A DNA stretch of 64,000 bases, from the NCBI RefSeq assembly GCF_001476815.1, contig NZ_LDSL01000018.1, positions 1-64,000 on the forward strand. Reading direction: 5' to 3'. Below the pieces are notes generated by a model. The model had not been told where the DNA came from. It did not search any database and worked only from the letters and a program-made list of their open reading frames with translations. Made by a program: the position numbers and the translations under genes. Of this stretch, positions 2,995 through 9,586 are shown piece after piece (position 1 is the stretch's first letter; each line of letters opens with the position of its first letter). This DNA comes from Pseudacidovorax intermedius. GTDB taxonomy: Bacteria; Pseudomonadota; Gammaproteobacteria; Burkholderiales; Burkholderiaceae_C.

Positions 2995-3603
2995 TTGTCC
3001 ATCTACCAGCTCAAGCCCCGCTTCCAGGCCCTGCTCCGCCCCCTGGTCCATCGACTCGCCGGGGCCGGGATCACGGCCAACCAGGTCACGCTGGCGGCAT
3101 GCGGGGTGTCCGTGCTGCTCGGGCTGTGGCTGTTCTGGGCCGCGCCGGGCCGGGTGGCCTTCGCGCTGGTGCCGCTGTGGATGCTGCTGCGCATGGCCTT
3201 CAATGCGGTGGACGGCATGCTGGCGCGCGAGCACGGCCAGAAGAGTGCCCTGGGCGCCTTTCTCAACGAGCTGACGGACGTGGTGTCCGACGCGGTGCTG
3301 TACCTGCCGTTCGCACTGGTGGCGCCCTTCTCCGGTTTCTGGGTGGGCGGGGTCATCGTGCTGGCCGGGCTGTCCGAATTCGCGGGCGCGCTGGGGCCCA
3401 CGGTGGGCGCCAGCCGGCGCTACGACGGGCCGCTGGGCAAGAGCGACCGGGCCTTCGTGTTCGGCGCGCTGGGCCTCTATGTGGCGCTGGGCTGGCCGCT
3501 GCCGCCGGCGGCCGCCTGGCTGATGCCGCTGCTGGCGCTGGCGGTGTGCTGGACCATGGTGCGCCGCGTGCGCGGCGCCCTGGCAGAAGTCGGCGCACGA
3601 TGA
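2995..3603 (+). CDS. ynbA: CDP-alcohol phosphatidyltransferase family protein, YnbA-like
   Basis: A 202-residue integral membrane protein, first gene of a ynb-type lipid operon. Members of this family move a phosphatidyl group from CDP-diacylglycerol to an alcohol. The motif at about residues 66-95 reads NAVDGMLAR, then G and NELTDVVSD. Compared with the family consensus DxxDGxxARx8GxxxDxxxD, the first and third Asp are Asn, while the second and fourth remain. The likely start is TTG at 2995 ([10 protein letters not shown]), as no suitable ATG exists. Several membrane helices follow. The alcohol substrate is unknown. It resembles E. coli YnbA, whose product is also uncharacterised. Confidence 0.82.
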
Positions 3604-3659
3604 CACGCCATGACCCGCCATCAAAATTCCACAACGACGACCCTGGGGAGGGTTCACAC

Positions 3660-5423
3660 ATGACGACAACCAGCACGCCACGCATCGCCGGGGAACACCA
3701 CTTCCGCACCCACGACGGCGAATCGCTCTTCTACCGCCACTGGCCGGCCACCGGCGGCGCGCGCCGCGGCGCGGTGCTGCTGTTCCACCGCGGCCACGAG
3801 CACGGCGCCCGCATGGCGCACCTGGTGGACGAGCTGGACCTGCCCGACTTCGACTTCTTCGCCTGGGACGCCCGTGGCCACGGCCGCTCGCCGGGCCAGC
3901 GCGGCCACAGCCCCAGCTTCGCGCATTCGGTGCGCGACGTGCAGACCTTCGTCGAGCACATCGCCGCGCAGCACGGCGTGGCGGAGCAGGACATGCACGT
4001 CGTGGCCCAGAGCGTGGGCGCGGTGCTGATCGCCACCTGGGCGCACGACTACGCCCCCAAGGTGCGCGGCCTCACGCTCGCCTCGCCGGCCTTCAAGGTC
4101 AAGCTCTACGTGCCCTTCGCGCGGCCGGGCCTTGCACTCATGCACAAGCTGCGCGGGCTGTTCTTCGTCAACAGCTACGTCAAGCCCAAGTTCCTCACGC
4201 ACGATCCGGCGCGCATCGCCAGCTACCAGGCCGATCCGCTGATCACCCGGCCCATCGCGGTCAACATCCTGCTCGACCTGTACGAGGCCGCCGAGCGCGT
4301 GGTGGACGACGCCCAGGCCATCGTGCTGCCGACGCAGTTGCTGATCTCGGGCGCCGACTGGGTGGTGCACCACGGGCCGCAGCACCGCTTCTTCGAGCGG
4401 CTGGGCAGCCGAGTCAAGGAGAAGCTGGAGCTGCCCGGCTTCTTCCACGACACGCTGGGCGAGCGGGACCGGGCCGGCGCGGTGGCCGCGGTGCGCGGCT
4501 TCGTGCTGCGGCTGTTCGATGCGCCGCCGGAACCGGTCGACCTGCGCGGCGCCGACCGCCAGGGCTTCACCGCCGACGAGGCCCGCGCACTCGCCGCGCC
4601 GCTGCCGGCGCTGTCGCCGCGCGGCCTGTACTGGGCCGCAACGCGCGCCGGGCTGCGGCTGGGTGGCCGACTGTCGAAGGGCATCGCACTCGGCCATGCC
4701 ACCGGCTTCGACTCCGGCAGCACGCTCGACTACGTCTACCGCAACGCGCCCGCCGGCGCACCGGTCATCGGCCGGCTGATCGACAAGACCTACCTCGATT
4801 CCATCGGCTGGCGCGGCATCCGCCAGCGCAAGCTGCACGTGGAAGAACTGCTGCGCGAGGCCATGGCCCGCCTGGCCACCGATGGCCGCGAAGTGCGGCT
4901 GATGGACATCGCCGCCGGCCACGGTCGCTACGTGCTCGACGCCGTGGCGGGCAGCGCGGTGGCGCCGGCCTCGATCCTGCTGCGCGACTACAGCGACATC
5001 AACGTGCGCGACGGCCAGCGCCTGATCGCCGAGCGCGGCCTGCAGGACACAGCGCGCTTCGTGCAGGCCGACGCCTTCGACCGCGCGAGCCTAGCCGCCG
5101 TCATGCCGCGGCCGACGCTGGCGGTGGTGTCCGGGCTGTACGAGCTGTTCCCGGACAACGAGATGGTCGCCCGCTCGCTGGACGGCGTGGCCAATGCGGT
5201 CGAGCCCGGCGGCTACTTGGTCTACACCGGCCAGCCCTGGCATCCGCAACTGGAAATGATCGCGCGGGCACTGACCAGTCACCGGCAGGGCCAGGCCTGG
5301 GTGATGCGCCGCCGCACGCAGGCCGAGATGGACCAGCTGGTGCAGGCCGCGGGCTTCCGCAAGATCGCCCAGCGCGTGGACCGTTGGGGCATCTTTACCG
5401 TCTCGCTCGCGCAGAAGGCATGA
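3660..5423 (+). CDS. ynbC: Alpha/beta hydrolase-methyltransferase fusion, YnbC-like
   Basis: A 587-residue cytoplasmic two-domain protein. Residues about 10-300 are an alpha/beta hydrolase of the lysophospholipase/monoacylglycerol lipase type, with AQSVGA (Ser118) as nucleophile elbow and GFFHDTLGE carrying the late His. Residues about 400-585 are a SAM-dependent methyltransferase with motif I DIAAGHGRY near 416. The order is as in E. coli YnbC. A GGGGAGGG ribosome-binding site precedes the ATG at 3660, and the stop overlaps the next start (ATGA). Context suggests it trims or methylates a phospholipid or its head group. That is inference; no substrate is known. Confidence 0.85.
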   Translation: MTTTSTPRIAGEHHFRTHDGESLFYRHWPATGGARRGAVLLFHRGHEHGARMAHLVDELDLPDFDFFAWDARGHGRSPGQRGHSPSFAHSVRDVQTFVEHIAAQHGVAEQDMHVVAQSVGAVLIATWAHDYAPKVRGLTLASPAFKVKLYVPFARPGLALMHKLRGLFFVNSYVKPKFLTHDPARIASYQADPLITRPIAVNILLDLYEAAERVVDDAQAIVLPTQLLISGADWVVHHGPQHRFFERLGSRVKEKLELPGFFHDTLGERDRAGAVAAVRGFVLRLFDAPPEPVDLRGADRQGFTADEARALAAPLPALSPRGLYWAATRAGLRLGGRLSKGIALGHATGFDSGSTLDYVYRNAPAGAPVIGRLIDKTYLDSIGWRGIRQRKLHVEELLREAMARLATDGREVRLMDIAAGHGRYVLDAVAGSAVAPASILLRDYSDINVRDGQRLIAERGLQDTARFVQADAFDRASLAAVMPRPTLAVVSGLYELFPDNEMVARSLDGVANAVEPGGYLVYTGQPWHPQLEMIARALTSHRQGQAWVMRRRTQAEMDQLVQAAGFRKIAQRVDRWGIFTVSLAQKA

Positions 5424-6745
5424 CGAACGAGCGCCCCTGGAAGCGCGCCCTCGCCTGGCTGGCCCTGCTGGGGCCCTTCTTCTACCTGAGCTATGGCCTC
5501 GCCAACTGGTGGGCCGGCACGCGGGCGCAGGTGCCGTCGGTGGTGTTCGACTGGGAGCGGGGCATGCCCTTCTGGGCCTGGACCATCTTTCCCTACTGGT
5601 CGATCAACGCCTTCTACGCGCTGTCGCTGTTCCTGGGCCGGACGCGGCATCGGGTGGACCGGCATGCGGCGCGGCTGCTGACCGCGCAAGTGGTGGCCGT
5701 CGGCTGCTTCGTGCTGTGGCCGCTTGCCTTCAGCTTCGGGCAGCCGGCGGTGGCGGGCGCGCCAGCCTTCCTGTTCGAGGCGCTGCGCGGCTTCGACAAG
5801 CCCTTCAACCAGGCGCCCTCGCTGCACATCGCGCTGGCCGTGATCCTGTGGGACTGGTACCGGCAGCTGATCCGAACGCGCTGGGCGCGCGGCGTGCTGC
5901 ACGGGTGGACGCTCTTGATCTGCGCCTCGGTGCTGACCACTTACCAGCACCACTTCATCGACATCCCGACCGGTGCGCTGCTGGGCGTGCTGTGCGTGTG
6001 GCTGTGGCCGCTGGAGCGGCAGGTGGCGCTGCCGCGCGCCTGGCGGCTGGCGCGGGATGCCGGGCGCTGGACGCTGGCCAGCGCCTACGCCGCAGGCGCG
6101 CTGCTGTGCCTGGGGCTGGGCCTGTGGGCGGGCGGCTGGCTGCTCTGGCTGGCCTGGCCTGCGGTGTCGCTCGCGCTCGTCGCCTTGAACTATGCCGGCC
6201 TGGGCGCGCGCGGCTTCCGCATGGATGGCCAGGGCCGCATGCACTGGACGGCGCGCTGGCTCTTCGGCCCCTACCGCGCCGCCGCCGCGCTCAACGCCTG
6301 GGCCTGGACGCGCCGGCTGCCCGCCAGTGCCGAGATCGCGCCCGGGCTGCGGCTGGGCCGCATGCCCGGCCATGCCGAATGGCAGGCCGCCGGCCGGCCG
6401 CGGCTGCTGAGCCTGTGCGCCGAGCTGCAGTTGCCGCCGGTGCCGCAGGCGCGCTGCGTGCCGATGCTGGACCTGGTGACGCCCTCGGCCGCGCAACTGC
6501 GGCGCGCCGTCGCCGTGCTGGAAGGCCAGCGGCGCGCGGGGCCCGTGTGGGTCTGTTGCGCGCTTGGCTTTTCGCGCAGCGCCGCAACGGTGGTGGGGTG
6601 GCTGCTGCGGCACGGCTCGGCCGCCGACCTCGGCACCGCCGAGGCAGCCGTGCGGCGTGCACGGCCGCAGATCGTGCTGCGCGAGCGCTGGCGCACCCTG
6701 CTGGCCCGCACGCAGGCAGGCCGGCAGCCGGAGGGCCCGGCGTGA
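5420..6745 (+). CDS. ynbD: PAP2 phosphatase fused to dual-specificity phosphatase, YnbD-like
   Basis: A 441-residue membrane protein with two phosphatase modules. The N-terminal part is a multi-pass PAP2-type lipid phosphatase with PSLHIA near residue 133 and TYQHHFID near 174. The C-terminal part (about 300-430) is a tyrosine/dual-specificity phosphatase with the Cx5R loop CALGFSR near 380. The architecture matches E. coli YnbD. The start overlaps the stop of the ynbC-like gene (ATGA), and the stop overlaps the next GTG start, so translation is probably coupled. A plausible job is to dephosphorylate a phosphatidyl-alcohol phosphate made by the YnbA-like enzyme; this is inferred from context. 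Confidence 0.83.
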   Translation: MTNERPWKRALAWLALLGPFFYLSYGLANWWAGTRAQVPSVVFDWERGMPFWAWTIFPYWSINAFYALSLFLGRTRHRVDRHAARLLTAQVVAVGCFVLWPLAFSFGQPAVAGAPAFLFEALRGFDKPFNQAPSLHIALAVILWDWYRQLIRTRWARGVLHGWTLLICASVLTTYQHHFIDIPTGALLGVLCVWLWPLERQVALPRAWRLARDAGRWTLASAYAAGALLCLGLGLWAGGWLLWLAWPAVSLALVALNYAGLGARGFRMDGQGRMHWTARWLFGPYRAAAALNAWAWTRRLPASAEIAPGLRLGRMPGHAEWQAAGRPRLLSLCAELQLPPVPQARCVPMLDLVTPSAAQLRRAVAVLEGQRRAGPVWVCCALGFSRSAATVVGWLLRHGSAADLGTAEAAVRRARPQIVLRERWRTLLARTQAGRQPEGPA

Positions 6746-7254
6746 GGGGCGGCCCCGTGTCGGCGCCAGAGGCGGACGACGACGCCACCGCGCGCAGCCG
6801 TTGCGCGGCATTGGCCGCCCTGCTCGGCGCCCACCGCGCCGTCGGCGCCTGGGGCGTGATGTCTTCTGCCCTGGCGGCGAGCGGACTGCTCGCGGCAGCC
6901 TTCGGTCTGGTACCACCGATGGCGGACGCGGCCGCCCTCTTCCTGGTCGCCGCCGGCCTGCTCGGCCTGGCCGAGCGCTACCTCGCCTTCCGCCTGCGGC
7001 TGGACGAAGCCTTGTTTCACGCGCTCGCCACGGGCCGGCTGGCGGGCCTTCCGGCGCTGGACGACGGCCTTGCCTGGCTGGGCCTGCGCCCCGCCACGTC
7101 CACGTCCATGTCCACGACCGCGCCGCGCAGCCTCCATGAGCGCCTGCGCGGCACTCGCGCGCTGCTGCGCCGCCATCTCGCCACCGTCCTGCTCCAGACC
7201 CTGTTCCTCACGGCCGCCCTCGCGGCCGGCTTCCTTCTTCATCCTCCCGCATGA
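6742..7254 (+). CDS. Small membrane protein of unknown function in the ynb operon
   Basis: A 170-residue protein I do not recognise. It starts with GTG overlapping the upstream TGA (GTGA) and ends with TGA overlapping the next ATG (ATGA), so it is a real, coupled member of the operon. Hydrophobic segments are visible at about residues 38-58 and 62-80, and near the C-terminus (about 148-166). The middle carries a short Ser/Thr-rich stretch (TSTSMSTT). E. coli ynbABCD has no obvious counterpart. Its place between the phosphatase and the acyltransferase suggests a role in the same lipid pathway or complex. Confidence 0.72.
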   Translation: MRGGPVSAPEADDDATARSRCAALAALLGAHRAVGAWGVMSSALAASGLLAAAFGLVPPMADAAALFLVAAGLLGLAERYLAFRLRLDEALFHALATGRLAGLPALDDGLAWLGLRPATSTSMSTTAPRSLHERLRGTRALLRRHLATVLLQTLFLTAALAAGFLLHPPA

Positions 7255-8039
7255 ACGACCTTCTCGACGCCGACACTCCGCCGCCGCGCGTGCTGCTGCG
7301 GCGGGCCGCCGCCTTCGTGTCGGCCCGCCTGATCGTGGGCGGTGCGCGCCTGCTGACCGGCGTGCGCGCCATCTGGAGCGGCACCACGCCGCTGGCCGAG
7401 ACCACGCTCTACTTCGCCAACCATTCCAGCCACGGCGACTTCGTGCTGGTGTGGGCCACGCTGCCGCCCGACCTGCGCGCCTGCACCCGGCCCGTGGCCG
7501 GGCAGGACTACTGGCTCGCCTCGCGCGCACGGCGCTTCATCGGCCGGGACGTGTTCAATGCGCTGATGATCCGCCGCGACGGCAGCGGCGCCACTGGCGC
7601 GCCGAGCGCCAACCCGGTCGAACAGATGGTGCAGGCGCTGCAGGCCGGCGACTCGCTCATCATGTTCCCGGAAGGCACGCGCAACACCGGCGATGCAGTC
7701 ATGCTGCCCCTCAAGAGTGGCCTGTTCCACCTCGCCCGCGCCTGCCCGCAGGTGCGCCTGGTGCCGGTGTGGATCGAGAACCTCCGGCGCGTGCTGCCCA
7801 AGGGCCAGCTGGTGCCGGTGCCGCTGGCCTGCTCGGTGCGCTACGGCGCGCCGGTGGTGCTGGCCGAGGGCGAGGACAAGGCATCGTTCCTCGCCCGCGC
7901 CCAGCAGGCGATGCTGGACCTGCGGCCCGATCACGACAAGGCAGAAGACGCGTCCACGGCGCCGCCTGCCGCAGCGCCCATTCCCTCCCCGCCCGCCGCG
8001 TCCCAGTCCGGCCAACCGAAGCAGGTCGACGCTCCATGA
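7251..8039 (+). CDS. 1-acyl-glycerol-3-phosphate acyltransferase family protein
   Basis: A 262-residue PlsC-like acyltransferase. The catalytic HX4D motif is in NHSSHGDF (about residues 57-64), and the substrate-binding motif FPEGTRN is near 139. The family transfers an acyl chain to lysophosphatidic acid or related lysolipids at the inner membrane. The C-terminal 40 residues are Pro/Ala-rich and probably disordered. Start and stop overlap both neighbours by four bases. With the next gene (CDP-DAG synthase-like) and the YnbA-like enzyme, the operon contains the steps from a lysophospholipid to a phosphatidyl-alcohol. Whether this is a housekeeping PlsC or a dedicated enzyme cannot be told here. 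Confidence 0.85.
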   Translation: MNDLLDADTPPPRVLLRRAAAFVSARLIVGGARLLTGVRAIWSGTTPLAETTLYFANHSSHGDFVLVWATLPPDLRACTRPVAGQDYWLASRARRFIGRDVFNALMIRRDGSGATGAPSANPVEQMVQALQAGDSLIMFPEGTRNTGDAVMLPLKSGLFHLARACPQVRLVPVWIENLRRVLPKGQLVPVPLACSVRYGAPVVLAEGEDKASFLARAQQAMLDLRPDHDKAEDASTAPPAAAPIPSPPAASQSGQPKQVDAP

Positions 8040-8983
8040 ACCCCACCACCCACACCACCCTGATGCTCTTCGGCGGCGTGGCCGGCGTGCTGGTGCTCGC
8101 CTCGGCCATCGGCGCGCTGCTCAAGTGGCGCGTGGCCCATGGCGGGCCGCATGCCGTCATCGACAACCTCAACGCCCGGGTCAACGCCTGGTGGGTGATG
8201 GTGGCCGTGATCGGCATCGCCTTCGCCTTCGGCAAGCTGGGCGTGATCGTGCTGTTCTACCTGGTCTCGTTCTATGCGCTGCGCGAGTTCCTGAGCCTCA
8301 CCTACACCCGCCGCGGCGACCACCTGGCCATGGCGGCCGCCTTCTACGTGGCACTGCCGGTGCAGTACTTCCTGGTATGGATCGAGTGGTACGGCATGTT
8401 CGCCATCTTCATCCCGGTGGAGGTGTTCCTGATCCTGCCCATCCTGTCGGCGCTGGGCGGCGACACGCAGCGCTTCCTGGAGCGCACGTCCAAGGTGCAG
8501 TGGGGGCTGATGGTCTGCGTGTTCTGCATCAGCCACGTGCCGGCGCTGCTGACGCTCCACATCCCGGGCTTCGAGGACCGCAACCTGCTGCTGATCGCCT
8601 TCCTGGTGATCGTGGTGCAGGGCAGCGACGTGCTGCAGTACGTCTGGGGCAAGCTGCTGGGGCGGCGCAAGGTGGCGCCGGAGCTGTCGCCCTCCAAGAC
8701 CTGGGAAGGGCTCGTCGGCGGCGTGGCCAGCGCCACGCTGCTGGGCGCGGCGCTGTGGTGGGCCACGCCCTTCACGCCCTGGCAGGCCGCGCTCATGGCC
8801 CTCATGATCTGCGTGATGGGCTTCTTCGGCGGGCTGGTGATGTCGGCCATCAAGCGCGACCGCGGGGTGAAGGACTGGGGCACCATGATCGAGGGCCACG
8901 GCGGCATGCTGGACCGGCTGGACTCCGTGATCTTTGCTGCACCGATGTACTTCCACGCCCTCCACTACTGGTGGGTTCCGTGA
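8036..8983 (+). CDS. ynbB: Phosphatidate cytidylyltransferase, YnbB-like (CdsA family)
   Basis: A 315-residue polytopic membrane enzyme predicted to make CDP-diacylglycerol from phosphatidate and CTP. The C-terminal CDP-diglyceride synthetase signature is present at about residues 270-297: SAIKRDRGVKD, then HGGMLDRLD. About eight membrane helices precede it. It is the last gene of the ynb-type operon and starts by ATGA overlap with the acyltransferase gene. It ends 21 bases from the stop of convergent ruvA. It is likely a second, pathway-specific CdsA rather than the essential one, judged from operon context. Confidence 0.88.
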   Translation: MNPTTHTTLMLFGGVAGVLVLASAIGALLKWRVAHGGPHAVIDNLNARVNAWWVMVAVIGIAFAFGKLGVIVLFYLVSFYALREFLSLTYTRRGDHLAMAAAFYVALPVQYFLVWIEWYGMFAIFIPVEVFLILPILSALGGDTQRFLERTSKVQWGLMVCVFCISHVPALLTLHIPGFEDRNLLLIAFLVIVVQGSDVLQYVWGKLLGRRKVAPELSPSKTWEGLVGGVASATLLGAALWWATPFTPWQAALMALMICVMGFFGGLVMSAIKRDRGVKDWGTMIEGHGGMLDRLDSVIFAAPMYFHALHYWWVP

Positions 8984-9004: not shown

Positions 9005-9586
9005 CTACTTCGCCAGCGCCTTCAACGCCATCTTGATGCCCTCGCTCACGCCCACGTCCTTGGGCAGGGCCTTGAGCGCGGCGGCGCCCTCCTTGTCGTT
9101 GTAGCCCAGCGCCAGCAGGGCCTGCAGGATGTCGGCCTGGGCGTCGCTGGCGGGCTGGGCCGCGGCGCCGGCGGTGCCCACCGCGTCGCCCAGCTTGCCC
9201 TTGAGTTCCAGCAGCAGCCGCTCGGCGGTCTTCTTGCCGATGCCGGGAATCTTCACCAGCCGGCCCGGCTCCTGCAGTGCGATGGCCTGCACCAGCTCGC
9301 CCACGCTCAGGCCCGACAGGATCCCCAGCGCCGTGCGCGGCCCCACGCCGGCGATCTTGATCAGCTGTCTAAAGGCCGCACGTTCTTCCGCCGACGCGAA
9401 GCCGTAGAGAATCTGCGCATCCTCGCGCACGATGAAATGCGTGAGCAGCGAGACCTTCGCCCCCACCTGCGGCAGGTTGTAGAAGGTGCTCATCGGCACG
9501 TCCACCTCGTAGCCCACACCGCCGCAGTCGATGACGATCTGCGGCGGGTTGCGTTCGGCCAGGGTTCCGGTGAGTTTTCCTATCAT
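9005..9586 (-). CDS. ruvA: Holliday junction branch-migration protein RuvA
   Basis: A 193-residue protein that binds Holliday junctions as a tetramer and loads RuvB. The OB-fold N-terminus starts MIGKLTGTL. Two helix-hairpin-helix motifs follow ([20 protein letters not shown]), then a flexible linker rich in Ala and the C-terminal RuvB-binding domain. The ATG at 9586 is the family start. It is convergent with the ynb-type operon and divergent from phoH with 48 bases between starts. Confidence 0.97.

What the first reader, a model, noticed from the sequence alone, without database searches (positions are those of the whole stretch)
2995..8983. A six-gene ynb-type phospholipid operon with two extra genes
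Genes like E. coli ynbA, ynbC, ynbD and ynbB are joined in one operon with a PlsC-like acyltransferase and an unknown membrane protein. All junctions after ynbC overlap by four bases (ATGA or GTGA). Together they would take a lysophospholipid to phosphatidate, CDP-diacylglycerol, a phosphatidyl-alcohol (phosphate), then dephosphorylate and methylate or trim it. The E. coli operon has no assigned product, and this version has a more complete set of steps. The enzyme families are established; the pathway is inference.
Basis: partly seen in the sequence, partly recalled or inferred. Interest (0 to 1): 0.78.

Follow-up and report, generated by a model that had tools for sequence, protein, structure and literature searches.

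The report
Arc1-type phospholipid operon for toxin defence
These six genes are a Pseudacidovorax copy of a lipid-making gene set that another bacterium needs to survive attacks by membrane-cutting toxins; the lipid is still unknown, and one of its enzymes carries an unusual altered active site.

Summary
The operon is real, as described: six co-directional genes at 2995-8983, with 4-base overlaps at all four junctions after ynbC. arc1 is needed to survive type VI attack, and arc1A contributes to resistance to lipase effectors (PMC8926400, PMC12663445). The six-gene content holds in 92 of 97 loci with room. E. coli nests among such loci in a YnbC tree, so it probably lost PlsC and the small gene.
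New here: (1) YnbA/Arc1A has Asn for two of the four signature Asp in 106 of 106 sequences, yet keeps a PIP-synthase fold and both acceptor-phosphate arginines. (2) The small gene, of no named family, directly follows YnbD in all 96 loci where it is found. (3) YnbD is probably two-faced. (4) Arc1 co-occurs with T6SS, uncorrected for relatedness. The product lipid is unknown.

The parts
2995..3603 (+). Gene A: YnbA/Arc1A, divergent CDP-alcohol phosphotransferase, 202 aa, TTG start; D1 and D3 of the signature are Asn70 and Asn91
   Evidence: PF01066 32.4 bits, cut-off 22; PIP-synthase fold, TM (query) about 0.73-0.75 for the best; N70, N91 in 106 of 106 sequences
3660..5423 (+). Gene C: YnbC/Arc1B, Hydrolase_4 (lysophospholipase/monoacylglycerol-lipase-like) fused to Methyltransf_20, 587 aa
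   Evidence: PF12146 233 bits, PF12147 508 bits; putative triad S118, D233, H263 each 107 of 107
5420..6745 (+). Gene D: YnbD/Arc1C, membrane PAP2 domain plus C-terminal dual-specificity phosphatase domain, 441 aa
   Evidence: PF14378 28.3 bits (cut-off 27), PF00782 below cut-off; model pLDDT 90.6; phosphatase domain matches solved dual-specificity phosphatases; H136, H177, D181 104 of 104, C380 101 of 101, R386 100 of 100
6742..7254 (+). Gene S: Arc1D, small hydrophobic, probably membrane protein, 170 aa, GTG start, no named family
   Evidence: no Pfam or NCBIfam hit; homologue directly downstream of D in 96 of 96 loci where one was found, of 106 searched
7251..8039 (+). Gene P: Arc1E, PlsC-like acyltransferase, 262 aa
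   Evidence: PF01553 56.6 bits; H58, D63, E141, G142 98 of 98; TIGR00530 only 40 of the 103 bits required
8036..8983 (+). Gene B: YnbB/Arc1F, CdsA-like cytidylyltransferase, 315 aa
   Evidence: PF01148 239 bits; K273, R274, K279, D280, H288, D293, R294 98 of 98

Best explanation
This is the Pseudacidovorax arc1 operon: an accessory phospholipid pathway that protects the cell envelope against lipase toxins delivered by rival bacteria. Proposed mechanism, all inference from anatomy: P reacylates a lysolipid to phosphatidate. B activates it with CTP to CDP-diacylglycerol. A moves the phosphatidyl group on to a phosphorylated alcohol, using a metal site with two Asn in place of Asp. The cytoplasmic phosphatase domain of D removes the exposed phosphate. 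C, a hydrolase-methyltransferase fusion, trims or methylates the product or clears lysolipids. The periplasm-facing PAP2 domain of D, with S as its likely partner, acts on the other leaflet. The outcome is a membrane restocked with, or containing, a lipid that lipase effectors attack poorly. Shown here: gene content, orthology to arc1, conservation, predicted fold of A. Shown by others in P. aeruginosa: a defence role for arc1, and for arc1A against lipase effectors. Inferred: every reaction, and the defence role in this organism.
For: Orthology: of nine fragments of published primers placed on L116, five match with 0 mismatches (PA2541 start twice and end once, PA2536 start and its upstream primer) and three with 1 (upstream of PA2541, a second PA2541 end primer, PA2536 end); C, D, S, P lie between. 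Function of arc1: transposon and deletion fitness defects under B. thailandensis T6SS attack, partly complemented (PMC8926400); arc1A deletion in a tssM1 mutant raises sensitivity to A. baylyi carrying only Tle1 and to V. cholerae, the latter reduced when TseL is inactive, while the strain lacking arc1A, arc3A and aas was not more sensitive to Tae1 or Tse2 (PMC12663445). Arc1-bearing genomes carry T6SS more often: 19 of 27 against 69 of 371 in the phylum sample, 10 of 13 against 33 of 137 in the family sample, the window's genome included in both (Fisher p 3e-8 and 2e-4). The window's genome has three VipA matches and a match to the Arc3A family PF10101. The putative catalytic residues of C, D, P and B named under parts are invariant in the rows that cover them.
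Against: In PMC8926400 no single B. thailandensis effector mutation changed the arc1 defect, only one arc1 gene passed the cut-off against Tle3 and one against ColA, and arc1 loss also let B. thailandensis survive modestly better, so lipase specificity is incomplete. In PMC12663445 the strain lacking arc1A, arc3A and aas was no more sensitive to V. cholerae than the one lacking arc3A, so the authors see arc1A as auxiliary. 8 of 27 Arc1 genomes of the phylum sample have no VipA match, and the co-occurrence is not corrected for relatedness or genome size. No lipid product is known. The Asn pair could mean that A does not do standard CDP-alcohol chemistry. Nothing was tested in Pseudacidovorax.
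Confidence: 0.55

Rival explanations
1. Damage clearance rather than a new lipid: the C hydrolase destroys lysophospholipids made by lipase toxins, P reacylates others, the periplasmic PAP2 domain removes phosphatidate, and B and A recycle the products into ordinary phospholipids.
For: C contains a lysophospholipase-type hydrolase (match to lysophospholipase L2 of 32 bits, far below its cut-off of 362); arc1A helps against lipase effectors (PMC12663445).
Against: It does not need a dedicated CDP-alcohol enzyme with an altered, invariant site, nor a methyltransferase. In P. aeruginosa regeneration of PE from lyso-PE required Aas (PMC8926400).
Confidence: 0.22
2. A second copy of the phosphatidylglycerol pathway (PlsC-CdsA-PgsA-PGP phosphatase) that raises PG during stress, as the homology noted in PMC8926400 suggests.
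For: Four of six genes resemble enzymes required for PG synthesis (PMC8926400); the acceptor-phosphate arginines of A are kept.
Against: E. coli YnbD did not complement a PGP-phosphatase-deficient strain (PMC7413402); E. coli YnbB did not complement cdsA (PMC6362211, data not shown there); A is closer to PIP synthase than to PGP synthase by sequence (E 8e-9 against 0.2) and by fold; another CDP-alcohol enzyme of the window's genome has the ordinary D1-D4 motif and resembles E. coli PgsA by eye.
Confidence: 0.12
3. A lipid pathway unrelated to defence, such as an auxiliary route to the glycolipid MPIase or a general membrane adaptation, with the P. aeruginosa phenotype a side effect.
For: Overproduced E. 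coli YnbB raises MPIase (PMC6362211); 8 of 27 genomes with the operon have no VipA match.
Against: An E. coli ynbB deletion did not significantly change MPIase (PMC6362211); P. aeruginosa arc1 mutants survived the general stresses tested as wild type (PMC8926400); T6SS co-occurrence.
Confidence: 0.1

Closest known systems
arc1 (arc1A-F, PA2541-PA2536) of Pseudomonas aeruginosa
   Same: Same six families in the order A-C-D-S-P-B, orthologous by sequence and by mapped primers; the letters arc1B-E for C, D, S, P follow from the order
   Different: Gac/Rsm control in P. aeruginosa (PMC8926400); regulation in Pseudacidovorax unknown; here the operon lies between ruvB and ruvA
ynbABCD of Escherichia coli K-12
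   Same: Orthologues of A, B, C, D, including the Asn-Asn motif of YnbA
   Different: Order A-B-C-D, no PlsC-like and no S gene; probable secondary loss
Mycobacterial phosphatidylinositol-phosphate synthase (PgsA1, PIPS)
   Same: Closest solved relative of A by sequence and fold; both acceptor-phosphate arginines kept
   Different: D1 and D3 of the metal site are Asn in A; 25 of 28 Arc1 genomes searched have no inositol-1-phosphate synthase match. The best NCBIfam match is archaetidylinositol phosphate synthase, 69 of the 180 bits required
LplT/Aas and Arc3 lipid-repair and protection systems
   Same: Also protect against lipase effectors (PMC8926400, PMC12663445)
   Different: Different protein families; additive with Arc1 against B. 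thailandensis in PMC8926400, not additive with arc1A against V. cholerae in PMC12663445

Membership tests
arc1 cluster | Six genes orthologous to PA2541-PA2536 in one operon | tested here: met
   published PA2541 and PA2536 primers bracket genes A and B of L116; C, D, S, P between; window genes homologous to all six
arc1 cluster | Protection against T6SS attack, in part against lipase effectors | not testable with these tools
   Shown in P. aeruginosa only (PMC8926400, PMC12663445)
arc1 cluster | Induction by Gac/Rsm | not tested
   [quoted passage not shown] not examined in this genome
CDP-alcohol phosphotransferases (gene A) | CDP-alcohol phosphotransferase fold | tested here: met
   pLDDT 92.2; 6h59 and 5d92: TM, query, 0.73-0.75 for the best chains
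CDP-alcohol phosphotransferases (gene A) | D2, G, A, R, G and D4 of the signature D1xxD2GxxAR...GxxxD3xxxD4 | tested here: met
   D73, G74, A77, R78, G87 106 of 106; D95 105 of 105 (one row gapped). In three further, divergent loci (L148-L150) the Arg is Thr or Gln
CDP-alcohol phosphotransferases (gene A) | D1 and D3 of the signature (metal ligands) | tested here: not met
   N70 and N91 in 106 of 106; three other CDP-alcohol enzymes of this genome and E. coli PgsA have Asp
PIP synthase (gene A) | Two acceptor-phosphate arginines (MtPIPS R155, R195) | tested here: met
   R152 and R191, 105 of 105, aligned by HMMER to two arginines of PgsA1 (residue numbers counted by me; roles from PMC4634129)
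PIP synthase (gene A) | Inositol phosphate made in the host | tested here: not met
   Ino1 (PF01658) match in 3 of 28 Arc1 genomes, the window's own genome being one of the three; uptake not examined
PAP2 phosphatase (gene D) | PAP2 catalytic motifs | tested here: inconclusive
   PSLH and QHHxxD invariant, PF14378 just over its cut-off (28.3 against 27 bits); by eye the Arg of motif C3 (motif recalled) is not in its place; no significant solved relative (best E 0.03)
Dual-specificity phosphatase (gene D) | CxxxxxR loop and fold | tested here: met
   Pfam DSPc itself is below its cut-off
CdsA (gene B) | C-terminal cytidylyltransferase signature | tested here: met
   and invariant residues; signature pattern recalled; E. 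coli YnbB does not complement cdsA (PMC6362211)
PlsC (gene P) | NHxSxxD and FPEGTR motifs (recalled); LPA acyltransferase | tested here: inconclusive
   Motifs kept; score far below the PlsC subfamily cut-off; substrate not testable
Anti-phage defence systems (PADLOC) | Match to a PADLOC model | tested here: not met
   0 families for 6 of 6 proteins

The most novel reading that the evidence does not exclude
Arc1/Ynb makes an undescribed membrane lipid through a CDP-alcohol phosphotransferase with a rebuilt metal site (two signature Asp fixed as Asn), finished by a two-faced phosphatase with its own small partner, and this lipid makes membranes resistant to lipase toxins. E. coli ynbABCD would be a reduced form of the same defence pathway, which would give the unassigned ynb operon a function.
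Probability: 0.3. Interest if true: 0.8.

Novelty: new member of a known kind. Interest (0 to 1): 0.52.

Why it matters
It ties two unexplained gene sets together: the E. coli ynb operon, for which the papers I read give no lipid, and arc1, which protects against interbacterial toxins by an unknown route. It points to one enzyme to test first: A matters in vivo in P. aeruginosa although two of the four aspartates called absolutely conserved in its family are Asn. If A works as its relatives do, the accepted two-metal site of this enzyme family is not universal; if it uses another donor or acceptor, a new lipid head group is likely.

Tried and rejected
Rejected: an E. coli-type operon with two added genes (E. 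coli nests among six-gene loci). Inositol phosphate as the general acceptor (Ino1 match in 3 of 28), though the window's own genome is one of the three. A known anti-phage system (no PADLOC match). A sphingomyelin-synthase or Aur1-like PAP2 domain: the PAP2_3 name suggested it from memory, but no such structure was among the 4 matches or the 50 rows listed, of 749, (those are taken up by the phosphatase domain); left open. S as a known family (no match; none for the window's S, and eight families that each matched one of 26 members, best E 0.016).

Limits: the 80 loci are the best of 503 and lean heavily to Comamonadaceae, so invariance counts lean on relatives. S was sought with an iterated profile built from these loci. 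Locus content was called by profile hits on stop-to-stop frames, so printed gene orders there are rough. Nine of 106 loci were flagged as having too little room downstream and set aside; one of these is E. coli K-12, where the absence of P and S is real. The tree used 49 of the 113 YnbC sequences then in hand, chosen by me, without the window's own; it flags E. coli as a long branch and its neighbours L133 and L135 for odd composition. In the family T6SS count I dropped G492 from the Arc1 side (partial match, positions 79-288 of 309); counting it gives 11 of 14 against 32 of 136. The 13 include three genomes of the divergent subtype without P and S. I counted partial VipA matches as T6SS.

Full report
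What is there. Six co-directional genes fill 2995-8983. A (2995-3603, TTG start) is separated by 56 bases from C (3660-5423); C/D, D/S, S/P and P/B overlap by ATGA, GTGA, ATGA, ATGA. Families: A CDP-alcohol phosphatidyltransferase; C serine hydrolase fused to Methyltransf_20; D PAP2 plus dual-specificity phosphatase; S no family; P acyltransferase; B cytidylyltransferase. The nearest YnbC relatives are from Pseudacidovorax (92-95% identity).

It is arc1. A literature search for the P. aeruginosa locus tags, which I recalled as the likely orthologues, gave one paper: PMC8926400 (abstract, outline, sections 5, 6, 7, 34 and passages seen). It names PA2541-PA2536 arc1A-F, an operon under Gac/Rsm control that protects against the T6SS of Burkholderia thailandensis; five of six genes were predicted to act in phospholipid metabolism. 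To test orthology without relying on memory I used the paper's deletion primers: the start of PA2541 matched one of 25 genomes of an unnamed genus that I took for Pseudomonas. Of nine primer fragments placed on that region (L116), five match with 0 mismatches, three with 1, and one, downstream of PA2536, was not found (best 6 mismatches); those for the gene ends bracket genes A and B. Profile hits give A, C, D, S, P, B in order there. The genome itself is unnamed.

What arc1 does. In PMC8926400 arc1 mutants lost fitness under attack, were partly complemented, and survived the general stresses tested as wild type; no single B. thailandensis effector explained the defect, and arc1 loss also modestly helped the attacker. 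PMC12663445 (passages) reports that arc1A contributes to resistance to lipase effectors: A. baylyi carrying only Tle1, and V. cholerae with TseL; its authors call the role of arc1A auxiliary there. A preprint (PMC11888443, passages) mentions Arc1 once. My searches for arc1 gene names, for arc1 with phospholipid terms and for ynbA with arc1 (listings) showed no paper in this library that I could see to name the Arc1 lipid or to link arc1 to ynb; most subscription papers are not held.

How common and how intact. Among 106 loci, 97 have room downstream; 92 of these hold all six genes. The five exceptions are L129 and L130 (no P, B), L068 (no S), L135 (A, C only) and L136 (no D, S). Gene order varies: in L067, L082 and L134, B and P lie on the upstream side of A. 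In a tree of 49 YnbC sequences E. coli K-12 groups with L135 (100/100) and these with the six-gene locus L133 and with L136 (97/92), inside a set that otherwise mostly has P and S, so the lack of P and S in E. coli is most simply a loss. The tree flags E. coli as a long branch and L133 and L135 for odd composition. Three divergent loci of the window's family (L148-L150) also lack P and S, with B-C facing A and D; they split off at the midpoint root, so the deepest ancestral state is open.

The odd enzyme. The family signature is D1xxD2GxxAR...GxxxD3xxxD4, called absolutely conserved in PMC4634129; D1-D3 bind metal and D4 is the likely base (PMC4634129, PMC6506517, passages). In all 106 A sequences (window and 105 loci) D1 is Asn70 and D3 is Asn91; HMMER aligns both to aspartates of M. 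tuberculosis PgsA1. The A proteins of L148-L150, L152 and L154 show the same pair (read by eye); in L148-L150 the signature Arg is changed as well, to Thr or Gln. Three other CDP-alcohol enzymes of the window's genome and E. coli PgsA have Asp at both places. In human CEPT1 replacing an aspartate of this motif by alanine (D154A) abolishes activity (PMC10156783, passages). Yet D2, D4, both acceptor-phosphate arginines (R152, R191, 105 of 105) and the nucleotide-binding Asn29 and Thr32 are kept, the model is confident (pLDDT 92.2) and the nearest solved folds are PIP synthases. Deletion of PA2541 has a phenotype that its gene partly restores, so A matters in vivo. It probably joins a phosphorylated alcohol to a lipid by a modified metal site; the acceptor is not generally home-made inositol phosphate (Ino1 match in 3 of 28 genomes). 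One search for such a substitution (7 papers listed, passages of three of them seen and none of the rest) showed none.

D and S. The model of D (pLDDT 90.6) has about eight long N-terminal helices that I take for membrane spans, then the phosphatase domain. Mean net charge over the aligned sequences is positive in the loops that would face the cytoplasm (N-terminus +1.7, loop 2 +0.5, loop 4 +1.4, loop 6 +1.1, the segment before the phosphatase domain +5.2) and near zero or negative in the others (loop 1 -0.3, loop 3 -0.9, loop 5 0, loop 7 +0.1). This puts the PAP2 residues outside and the phosphatase inside; it is an inference, and some differences are small. S has no named family, but its profile has 96 hits in 106 loci, one per locus, every one starting from -6 to +89 bases of the D stop, also where P and B are elsewhere or absent. 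S is best read as a partner of D.

Links to T6SS. Of 398 phylum genomes, 27 carry Methyltransf_20; 19 of these and 69 of the other 371 have VipA; for the Arc3A family PF10101 it is 14 of 27 against 71 of 371. In the family sample of 150, 10 of 13 against 33 of 137 have VipA. Fisher p values are 3e-8, 3e-4 and 2e-4, uncorrected for relatedness and genome size; the window's genome is in both samples.

Known tests of the E. coli parts. YnbD did not replace C55-PP or PGP phosphatases (PMC7413402, passages). YnbB did not replace CdsA but raised MPIase when overproduced; deleting it did not significantly change MPIase (PMC6362211, passages). These speak against a plain second PG pathway, by homology only.

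Verdict. A real and conserved operon, a new member of a known cluster (arc1), with a known defence phenotype elsewhere and unknown chemistry. The altered active site of A, the S-D linkage and the ynb-arc1 link are what this study adds.

Noticed in passing
1820-2884 and 9005-9586 (- strand): ruvB and ruvA, usually neighbours (recalled), are separated by this operon. Of 112 loci searched, 32 have ruvB on the upstream and ruvA on the downstream side of arc1, 15 show ruvB alone, and one (L068) has both on one side. It may mark the insertion site of arc1 in this family.
   Followed up: partly
L148, L149, L150: A divergent Ynb subtype in the same family: B-C on one strand, A and D on the other, no P and no S, with the Asn-Asn motif kept and the signature Arg of A changed.
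   Followed up: partly
G000:C15:3667-4533 (L143, L144): A third CTP_transf_1-type protein in the window's genome besides the one on C243 and gene B.
   Followed up: no
L057: A Desulfobulbus MAG carries a YnbC very close to that of an Azonexus MAG in the tree: recent transfer or a mis-binned contig.
   Followed up: no
L085:4227-8202: ynbB-D is not fixed in E. coli: a match in 4,579 of 5,426 genomes, at least 80% covered in 4,277; of five records listed, one has an IS5-family transposase under the match and one only a 7% piece in D.
   Followed up: no
PMC8926400 (Methods and Appendix 3): The methods speak of tagging and expressing Arc1F while the primer table tags and clones PA2541, which is arc1A by the paper's own numbering: possibly a naming slip.
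   Followed up: no
E. coli ynbA: ynbA is listed in a table of a genome-wide c-di-GMP screen (PMC13031359, one passage).
   Followed up: no
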